In this document: in pieces, positions 23,877 to 25,943 of the stretch
Layout: each line of letters starts with the position of its first letter
Position numbering within the stretch: the stretch's first letter is position 1
Assembly: GCA_015183035.1 (NCBI GenBank)
Contig: JACZZP010000009.1
Span: 1,736,001-1,800,000 of the forward strand
Length of the DNA stretch: 64,000 bases
Direction: 5' to 3'
Source: Meloidogyne chitwoodi
Lineage: Eukaryota > Nematoda > Chromadorea > Rhabditida > Meloidogynidae
Position numbers and translations under genes: made by a program
The notes under the pieces: generated by a model
Told to the model about the DNA's origin: nothing
Databases searched by the model: none
The model's input: the letters and a program-made list of their open reading frames with translations, nothing else

Positions 23877-25261
23877 ATGAATGTTTTATCATTAAACATT
23901 GAGTGTCATGAACGTGGTTTCAAGAAAACTATGCAATTTGAGCCAAATACGCCTGTCCATGATATTTGCCGAATGGTTCGAGATAAACTTGGTCCAATGT
24001 CTGGAAATCGTAAATTTCTAAATTTCTATAATTTATTTTATTTTATTATTTAAGCAAATGATTATGGACTTTTCAGAGTAGAAGATGACTTAACAAAATG
24101 TGTTTGGATGGAAAATGGACGTACTTTGGAATATTATTTAATTCGAAACGGGGTTTATTTTATCTTAAAAACTTTATTAAATAAATTGTAATTTGGAAAT
24201 CTTATTTATATTATGTACTTATCCCTAATTTACGTAATACCCTATTAATTCTGAGTAATCAAAATATTTGTACTCTTTAATTAATTTTAGGATACTCTCG
24301 AATATAAAAACAAAATCCGGTCACTTAGAATAAGAACATTAGATGGTGGAGCAGTAAAGACTATATTTGTAGATGAATCTCAACCAGTTTCTCAATCAAT
24401 GGTTTTTTAAATTTAAATTTTATTTATAGAATTATTTAGGTCGTTATTTGTTCAAAAATGGGAATTGCGAATCATGAAGAATATTCTCTTTTCCGTGGAT
24501 TTTCACCTGCTTTAGATGGAACTGATGAAAACGGTTATGGATTTGATCAACATCAAATCCTCAAAGGCAGCTTGGAAAATACTTTTATGAATACAATCGG
24601 TCGAAAAAAAGAAAAACAATTACAACAATTAAGGTTATATTTAAAAAATATTAATATAGTTTTTTTACAACAATAATTTTATTAATTTTTAGAGTAAAAT
24701 TACATACTGAAGAAAAAATCAATTGGGTTGATCATTCAAAAACATTACGTGAACAAAATATTTGTGAAAATGAAGAATTGACTTTAACAAGAAAATTTTT
24801 CTTTTCTGATACAAATGTTGACACACGAGATCCTGCTCAATTAAATTTGGTTCAAAAAATTTCGAAAAGAATTACGTTTTTTTGTTTTAGCTTTATATTC
24901 AATGTCGTGATGGAGTTCTTCATGGCTTACATCCAGTAGGTAGAGTTGAGGTTAAGAAAGAGTCTGTTGAAGACCGATTGGCCGAAATGGGTGCAGCTAC
25001 AGCTGAAGTGAGTTTTGAAAAAATAAATTAAAGTAGTTTTAATTTTAAACATTAGGTTGTTCAATTGACTGCTATTCCGGAAGAATCAATTGTTGATACA
25101 AGTGTGGGAAATACAATTGCCACAATCAGTTCAAATCTTCCAGAGATGGGTCGAGGGGTCCTTGAGCTAGCTGCTCTCATGCCTGATGAACATCGTGCTG
25201 GTGATCTCGTTGATGCGGACTGGAAGCCCATTGCAACAAGTACCCCACACCTATTTTTACA
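23877..25261 (+). CDS. Truncated talin: head (F0-F1 and start of F2) joined to part of rod R1
   Basis: Seven exons (23877-24009, 24055-24152, 24291-24401, 24440-24633, 24693-24849, 24891-25007, 25056-25261) join in phase to give 338 codons. Residues 1 to about 240 follow the talin head: KKTMQFEPNTPVHDICRM, WMENGRTLEYYLIRNGDTLEY, LHTEEKINWVDHSKTLREQ and RKFFFSDTNVDTRDPAQLNL. Right after LHGLHPV, where talin should continue through F2, F3 and the linker, the frame instead continues as AAMGAATAEVV-type sequence and TISSNLPEMGRGVLELAALM, which is the talin rod R1 helix. Several hundred residues are therefore missing inside one exon (24891-25007), with the frame kept. Most of the rod and the C-terminal actin-binding module are absent. 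Full talin is about 2500 aa and links integrins to actin. The frame stays open into the CENP-A exons. It may be a partial duplicate, a chimeric gene or an assembly artefact. Confidence 0.85.
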
Positions 25262-25299
25262 GTAAGCAATTTAGGGTATTGAGTGTTTATTATTTTTAA

Positions 25300-25309
25300 T
25301 TAAAGAGCA
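25300..25309 (+). promoter_or_regulatory. Splice acceptor just before the CENP-A start (cis or SL trans)
   Basis: AATTAAAG ends at 25305 and the next exon begins AGCAATG, placing the CENP-A ATG 4 nt downstream. As a cis acceptor it joins talin-like exon 7 in phase (CA|A GCA ATG). The very short leader is also typical of SL trans-splicing. The sequence cannot tell these apart. Confidence 0.55.
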
Positions 25310-25943
25310 ATGACTGTTTCGGCTGATTGTGATGATTTTAGACTTAAAGACCAAGTAATTCAAAGTGCAATGAAAACACCCTATTCAAATTCAGATTCGG
25401 TTTCTTTTTTTTTAAATTTTGAATCTTTATTGTCATTCTCAGGTTCCTTGTACTCATGTTGTTACTCCAATACTTCATGGTTCAATTAGTAGTAAAAGGA
25501 GGCCGCGAAGACGACCGAATTCTAAGTATTTTCTAGCATTTTGCTTTTATTTTCAAATAAAATTTTAATTTTTATAAAGAAAAAATATTTTAAATAAATT
25601 TAGTGTTCTTCTTGAAATACGAAAATATAGAAAAACTACTGATATGATGATTCCACGTTCACCTTTTTCCAAACTTTTCAAAGAAATTTTGCAAAATGCA
25701 CTAACACCTGGAAGGAATTTAAAAGTTGAAACAAAGGCAATTGATGCATTACATGAGGTTTTTTCACATGATTTTTAATTGAATGTTTTTTTAAAACTTT
25801 AGTCATCCGAATCATTTATTACAACATTTTATGAGGCAGCAAATAGATGTGCCATACATGCGAGACGTGAAACAGTGAAACCTGAAGATTTTAATTTGGT
25901 TCGGTGGATATTAAATGCTTTTGGTATAAATACATTACGTTAA
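25310..25943 (+). CDS. Centromeric histone H3 variant (CENP-A)
   Basis: Exons 25310-25399, 25443-25525, 25604-25757 and 25803-25943 give 155 aa if translation starts at this ATG. The tail is short and ends in a basic KRRPRRRPNS patch. The histone fold follows: VLLEIRKYRKTTDMMIP (alphaN), PFSKLFKEIL (alpha1), ALHESSESFITTFYEAANRCAIHARRETVKPEDFNLVRWI (alpha2-alpha3, matching H3 ALQEASE..CAIHAKRVT..P.D..LARRI). Loop 1 (NALTPGRNLKV) is longer than canonical H3 (DFKTDLRF), and the tail lacks the H3 ARTKQTARKS block. Both are CENP-A marks. CENP-A replaces H3 in centromeric nucleosomes. Read without a new start, it is the C-terminal part of a 495-residue talin-CENP-A frame. Confidence 0.88.

What the first reader, a model, noticed from the sequence alone, without database searches (positions are those of the whole stretch)
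23877..25943. Talin head plus rod fragment runs in frame into a centromeric histone H3
Seven talin-like exons and four CENP-A exons are on one strand, 48 bp apart, and the splice phase matches (CA|A GCA ATG). The frame is open for 495 codons from the talin start to the CENP-A stop. Talin and CENP-A have no known functional link. This could be a real chimeric gene adding a FERM-type head to the centromere protein, a two-gene operon, or a duplicated talin fragment that supplies CENP-A with its promoter.
Basis: partly seen in the sequence, partly recalled or inferred. Interest (0 to 1): 0.88.

Follow-up and report, generated by a model that had tools for sequence, protein, structure and literature searches.

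The report
Talin piece fused to histone variant
In this root-knot nematode genome the front part of a duplicated cell-adhesion gene (talin) has been joined, inside one exon, to the DNA-packaging part of a centromere-type histone, and the matching histone of a sister species carries the front of a different gene instead, which hints that this histone can borrow new tails.

Summary
The full-length talin gene lies about 250 kb away on the same contig. Comparison with it shows that intron 25262-25305 is an ordinary talin intron. The supposed CENP-A start and N-tail (ATG 25310 onward) are talin rod sequence with a Lys-to-Met change. The true join lies inside exon 25443-25525, near 25471-25493, so the histone part has no start or full tail of its own: one chimeric gene, not two neighbours. 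The fold belongs to a root-knot/cyst-nematode H3-variant family. It meets the CenH3 sequence diagnostics tested, but a second, more CENP-A-like gene exists on another contig, so its being THE centromeric histone is unproven. M. hapla orthologues carry a LENG8-derived tail instead. An M. graminicola truncated talin shares part of the derived 3' end, so the talin piece is probably old. No stops and no frameshifts, with residues drifting, fit read-through from the talin ATG. No transcript data were available.

The parts
23262..23845 (.). ATCGT-type tandem repeats and dispersed repeats directly upstream; no talin upstream sequence detected
23858..23876 (+). Acceptor-like site TTTTTCCTTTAG (AG ends at 23869) followed by a 7-nt leader; possible spliced-leader site for the talin ATG
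   Evidence: 6.0 bits, 94th percentile of 2455 AGs in the window, but below the lowest of the 20 training acceptors (6.8). Inferred function
23877..24009 (+). Exon 1, talin F0 with start codon
24055..24152 (+). Exon 2, talin F0
24291..24401 (+). Exon 3, talin F0/F1
24440..24633 (+). Exon 4, talin F1, with 26 codons missing
24693..24849 (+). Exon 5, talin F1
24891..25007 (+). Exon 6, start of talin F2 joined in frame to early rod; 300 codons missing
25056..25261 (+). Exon 7, talin rod, 60 codons missing; ends at the same donor as full talin
25262..25305 (+).
25306..25399 (+).
25443..25525 (+). Exon 9, chimeric: talin to about 25470, then histone-variant basic tail (KRRPRRRP)
25604..25757 (+). 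Exon 10, histone fold, first part
25803..25943 (+). Exon 11, histone fold, second part, and stop

Best explanation
A single chimeric gene. A 5' piece of a duplicated talin gene (start codon, eight exons and part of a ninth) was joined by a DNA rearrangement, inside an exon, to the histone-fold part of a CenH3-type H3 variant, replacing that histone's own start and most of its tail. The talin piece also lost most of F2, all of F3, the linker and part of the rod in frame. Most likely the whole 495-codon frame is transcribed, cis-spliced and read through. The product would be a histone variant with a long talin-derived N-terminal extension (F0 and most of F1). It lacks the F3 lobe that binds integrin in ordinary talin (recalled). 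The extension works mainly as start codon and tail: its frame is kept while its residues drift. Shown: anatomy, the in-exon join, open frame, homologies. Inferred: expression, the start used, and any role at chromosomes.
For: Open 495-codon frame with 10 GT-AG introns. Talin similarity up to 25470, through the disputed intron. Histone fold continuous downstream. Against full talin over 375 aligned codons: 80 substitutions, 0 stops (neutral simulation mean 3.85, P of none 0.011, with all 80 placed on this copy). For exons 1-7 alone, 64 substitutions, 0 stops, P 0.03-0.17 depending on how many fell on this copy. All 3 coding gaps are whole codons (26, 300, 60), while all 7 intron indels are not multiples of 3; P that all 7 fall in introns 2.7e-4 at equal rates. 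In the 3' talin part a 6-sequence tree groups this copy with an M. graminicola truncated talin (0.959). M. hapla orthologues show that this histone can carry another gene's 5' end.
Against: No RNA or protein data. The intron at 25262-25305 has a weak acceptor (4.0 bits, but 3.55 in full talin too). An in-frame ATG at 25310 could start a 155-aa form. dN/dS of 0.51 between the copies, with 16 of 20 residue differences of the 5' part lying on this copy, gives no sign that the talin residues themselves matter. Introns may simply take indels more often than exons, and indels were not assigned to a copy. The talin stop test alone is weak. None of the 22 proteins listed (lengths limited to 0.55-1.75 of the query) joins talin to a histone.
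Confidence: 0.62

Rival explanations
1. Short form: only a 155-aa protein is made, from the ATG at 25310, with a spliced leader or a new transcription start at 25306. Talin exons 1-7 are leftover upstream DNA, and the histone tail is about 58 residues, 39 of them from the talin rod.
For: AAA-to-ATG change four bases after an existing acceptor. SL1-like sequence (letters recalled) occurs 7 times exactly in the genome, 25 times with up to 1 mismatch, control 0.
Against: Exons 1-7 carry no stop or frameshift. The better acceptor-like site lies before the talin ATG (6.0 versus 4.0 bits), though both fall below the 20 training sites. The 25305 acceptor is an inherited cis-splice site of talin.
Confidence: 0.2
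2. Decaying locus: a non-functional chimera of a dispensable histone paralogue, open by chance and by sequence exchange with the full talin gene.
For: Another CenH3-like gene exists. dN/dS between the talin copies is 0.51, with 16 of 20 residue differences of the 5' part on this copy. Exons 2-5 look homogenised with full talin (1-5% divergence against 9-13% in exons 1, 7 and 8).
Against: The histone fold is 76% identical to M. hapla P0023 over 104 residues and open throughout, with GT-AG introns. All 3 coding gaps are whole codons while all 7 intron indels are not. A truncated relative persists in M. graminicola.
Confidence: 0.13
3. Assembly artefact joining unrelated contigs.
For: Reads were not available.
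Against: The join lies within an exon and is preceded by diverged, indel-bearing talin introns. An M. graminicola protein shares part of the derived 3' end of the truncated talin. The contig is 2.45 Mb long.
Confidence: 0.03

Closest known systems
Caenorhabditis afra hcp-3L8 (CENP-C/HCP-4 5' exons fused to a CenH3 paralogue; PMC9577544, passages read)
   Same: Nematode CenH3-type histone with the first exons of another gene fused in frame at its N-terminus, while the intact partner gene is kept
   Different: There the partner is a kinetochore protein that binds CenH3 and a chimeric transcript was shown by RT-PCR; here the partner is a cell-adhesion protein and no transcript evidence exists
Meloidogyne CenH3 paralogues (Despot-Slade et al. 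2021, msaa336; not held, known only from passages of citing papers)
   Same: PMC9577544 states that Meloidogyne has a conserved alphaCenH3 and faster-evolving paralogues; this gene could be one of the latter
   Different: I could not see those sequences, so I cannot say whether this gene is among them or whether its talin tail was noticed
Talin
   Same: FERM_f0 and part of Talin_middle at high score
   Different: Lacks most of F2, all of F3 and nearly all of the rod
M. hapla P0023/P0026 and Globodera P0024 histone variants
   Same: Orthologous histone fold (76, 69 and 55% identity)
   Different: M. hapla copies have a LENG8-derived tail; the Globodera model is 153 aa with a short tail and no talin

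Membership tests
CenH3 / CENP-A | H3-type histone fold | tested here: met
CenH3 / CENP-A | Extended loop 1 | tested here: met
   Plus 3 residues against H3
CenH3 / CENP-A | Loss of H3 Gln, Phe and Thr at the diagnostic sites (a PMC4359364 passage, numbers them 69, 85, 118; tested here as Q68, F84, T107; the third site's numbering is ambiguous, and T118 itself is kept, as in human CENP-A) | tested here: met
   S, V, A at Q68, F84, T107; human CENP-A letters and the ends of H3 in that alignment are recalled
CenH3 / CENP-A | Closer to CENP-A than to H3 in sequence | tested here: inconclusive
   H3 82.0 bits versus human CENP-A (recalled letters) 59.7, and the 60 best of 175 PDB matches are H3-type, so this points away from CENP-A; all CenH3 diverge from H3, so it does not decide. 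Gene L008 on C15 does score CENP-A above H3
CenH3 / CENP-A | Sits at centromeres and recruits the kinetochore | not testable with these tools
   none
Talin | Complete FERM head with F3, and rod | tested here: not met
   26, 300 and 60 codons missing; the fragment ends in the early rod. It is a talin fragment, not a talin
In-frame chimeric gene | Two unrelated genes joined in one frame with splice sites that fit | tested here: met
In-frame chimeric gene | Transcript across the join | not testable with these tools
   no RNA data at hand

The most novel reading that the evidence does not exclude
A fast-evolving CenH3-type histone family of root-knot nematodes repeatedly swaps its N-terminal tail by fusing its histone fold to the 5' exons of unrelated housekeeping genes: talin here (and perhaps in M. 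graminicola) and LENG8 in M. hapla. Chromosomes in these species would then carry histones with borrowed cytoskeletal or RNA-factor tails.
Probability: 0.4. Interest if true: 0.8.

Novelty: new variant of a known kind. Interest (0 to 1): 0.62.

Why it matters
CenH3 tails evolve so fast that they often cannot be aligned between lineages (stated in PMC9577544). Here is a case, with a traceable donor, in which a tail appears to have been replaced outright by another gene's 5' exons, with a different donor in a sister species. If expressed, it would test whether such tails need any particular sequence.

Tried and rejected
Promoter capture from talin: rejected, no clear talin similarity beyond 5 bp before the ATG (268 bases of talin upstream; widened to 1377 against 5968 bases, only short scattered matches, best E 0.007). 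The idea that the M. hapla N-tail match on C30 was the broken-off original CENP-A tail: rejected, that locus reads as an intact LENG8-type gene (exon joins by eye). The idea that the window gene is the only CENP-A of the genome: rejected after L008 was read. A downstream duplication: matches of the 857 bases after the stop are partial only, the longest outside itself 181 query bases at 83% on contig C6. Searches for print on talin-CENP-A, LENG8-CENP-A or related fusions (also 35, 42, 57 for Meloidogyne CenH3) listed none that I recognised; from the listings only titles and abstract starts were seen, and most listings are a top slice. Papers read by passages only: PMC9577544, PMC9071541, PMC12643312, PMC9673304, PMC12321929, PMC11538461, PMC4359364, PMC12614787, PMC12002905. 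The key Meloidogyne CenH3 paper (PMC8097292) is not held. The structural comparison ties CENP-A and H3 rows and does not separate them.

Counting choices: the 140+2+38-base pieces in exon 7 were counted as one 60-codon gap, and the 12-base insertion at 25463 was dropped as an alignment effect at the join. In one search, 18 columns differ between window copy and full talin; two lie beyond the part shared with P0001 and were dropped. Of the other 16, P0001 agrees with the window copy in 7, with full talin in 6 and with neither in 3.

Full report
WHERE IT IS. The window is G000:C30:1736001-1800000 of a 47,477,280-base, 30-contig genome. The nearest relatives of the talin part and of the histone part are Meloidogyne proteins. 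Size and contig number fit M. chitwoodi (recalled); the reference N50 of 2.3 Mb quoted in PMC12002905 is in keeping with it, but no tool named the species. The genome holds exact SL1 leader sequence (letters recalled) 7 times and 25 times with at most one mismatch, against 0 for the reversed control, so spliced-leader trans-splicing is probably available.

WHAT WAS CONFIRMED. Splicing 10 GT-AG introns gives a 1488-base frame, 495 codons plus stop, from 23877 to 25943. Pfam finds FERM_f0 (1.6e-33), Talin_middle (3.8e-19) and Histone (8.3e-21) in it.

WHERE THE BORDER REALLY IS. The own-genome search found the full talin gene on the same contig, minus strand, near 1.507-1.510 Mb, about 250 kb away. 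Searching with the supposed CENP-A also hit that talin gene: residues 2-43 match an exon at C30:1506857-1506982 with 60% identity. In full talin, the exon that ends in LVLQ is followed by a 43-base intron and then AKTVSADCDDPGLKDQVIQSAMKTAYATSELVACTRVVGPT. The window has AMTVSADCDDFRLKDQVIQSAMKTPYSNSDSVPCTHVVTP at the same place. DNA similarity runs across the intron and stops at 25470. The ATG at 25310 that looked like a start codon is the talin AAA codon changed at two bases. The native histone part begins somewhere in 25471-25493 (GSISS or KRRPRRRP, compare). The join is inside an exon.

WHAT IS MISSING FROM THE TALIN PIECE. Relative to full talin 26, 300 and 60 codons are absent, the 300-codon gap removing most of F2, all of F3 and the linker (sequence; domain limits, and F3 as the integrin-binding lobe, are recalled). 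Upstream, clear similarity to the talin locus begins 5 bases before the ATG; a wider test found only short scattered matches (best E 0.007). Parts of 23466-23845 have 44 other matches in the genome (40 of 124 candidates scored): dispersed repeats.

AGE. The 5' and 3' parts tell different stories. A tree of the 5' talin part groups the window copy with the genome's own full talin (0.838); a six-sequence tree of the 3' part groups it with the M. graminicola truncated talin P0001 (0.959) against full talin. In the 3' part, of 16 usable columns where window copy and full talin differ, P0001 agrees with the window copy in 7, with full talin in 6 and with neither in 3. The seven include VKKES, DEHR and PxATSTPHLFL. 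For the P, H and F of PHLFL, the three of seven outgroups that align side with full talin, except one fish sequence with T at the H site; the H of DEHR is also seen in one outgroup, P0022. Intron mismatch is 0-12% in introns 1-6 and 19-21% in introns 7-8; exon divergence is 1-5% in exons 2-5, 7% in exon 6 and 9-13% in exons 1, 7 and 8. An old duplication with later sequence exchange in the middle explains this best (inference). P0001 ends at the same exon border; whether a histone fold follows in M. graminicola could not be seen. P0001 could also be a poor gene model.

SELECTION. Over 375 aligned codons the copies differ by 52 nonsynonymous and 28 synonymous changes, dN/dS 0.51. In the 5' part, 16 of 20 residue differences lie on the window copy, 1 on the full copy and 3 are unclear, judged against M. 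hapla and M. incognita, so its own residues drift, perhaps nearly neutrally; synonymous changes could not be put on a nucleotide outgroup. Yet there are no stops (neutral mean 3.85, P 0.011 over all; 1.7-3.3, P 0.17-0.03 for exons 1-7), all three coding gaps are whole codons, and all seven intron indels are not multiples of three (P 2.7e-4 that all fall in introns if rates were equal). Frame kept while residues drift is what read-through to a needed downstream domain would leave. The caveats are that introns may take indels more often and that indels were not assigned to a copy.

START SITE. The AG at 23869, 7 bases before the talin ATG, scores 6.0 bits on a 20-acceptor matrix (94th percentile of 2455 AGs, but below the lowest training site, 6.8). 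The AG at 25305 scores 4.0 and the same intron of full talin 3.55; neither was in the training set. This mildly favours the long form.

WHICH HISTONE. The fold is orthologous to M. hapla P0023 and P0026 and Globodera P0024 (76, 69, 55% identity). It meets the CenH3 sequence diagnostics used in PMC4359364, with the caveat on the third site given in the membership test. But the genome holds a second gene, L008 at C15:79249-79822, that also meets them and scores CENP-A above H3 in the PDB (95.1 bits for an H3.1/CENP-A chimera and 88.3 for the best plain CENP-A chain, versus 83.8 for the best H3; best 60 of 176 shown), while the window fold scores H3 higher. L007 on C15 is an H3 variant with an H3-like tail. 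The label 'centromeric' is therefore plausible, not shown. A structure model of P0023 has a confident histone fold and a low-confidence tail (mean pLDDT 58.5) and matches CENP-A and H3 alike.

THE M. HAPLA TAIL. Residues 11-107 of P0023 match the N-terminus of the window genome's LENG8-type gene (44% identity, 1e-16); P0026 matches it too, including a second stretch. By my reading of its exons that gene continues into a SAC3_GANP domain (4.3e-11) whose best PDB match is named Leukocyte receptor cluster member 8 (3.7e-46), so its N-terminus is taken as its own. It lies 37 kb from the window's histone fold. Two M. hapla models on contigs of different length plus a third model from another source carry this tail, so it is unlikely to be one bad annotation, but introns and RNA there were not seen.

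VERDICT. The precedent is C. afra hcp-3L8. The apparent change of tail donor between sister species is the most interesting part and rests, on the M. hapla side, on protein models alone.

Noticed in passing
41404-45339: Tandem satellite of 101-bp units, about 39 copies, 95% matching, its unit holding an inverted repeat; a 46-bp array lies within 37625-39078. Whether it carries a Meloidogyne centromere box was not tested.
   Followed up: no
L008 / G000:C15:79249-79822 (-): A second CenH3-like gene, more CENP-A-like than the window gene, three exons matched.
   Followed up: partly
L007 / G000:C15:10042-10471 (+): Diverged H3 variant with an MARTKQTA-type tail and Trp at the F84 site, 63% identical to L008 in the fold.
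   Followed up: partly
P0023, P0026 (M. hapla proteins): Histone-variant proteins whose tails match the LENG8 N-terminus.
   Followed up: partly
23536-23668 and 23677-23845: Dispersed repeats with many partial copies over the genome; some copies of the first form inverted pairs about 650-660 bp apart; mobile-element-like.
   Followed up: no
P0003 (M. hapla): Talin head model run together with reverse-transcriptase sequence (Pfam PF00078, name recalled): either an insertion or a bad gene model.
   Followed up: no
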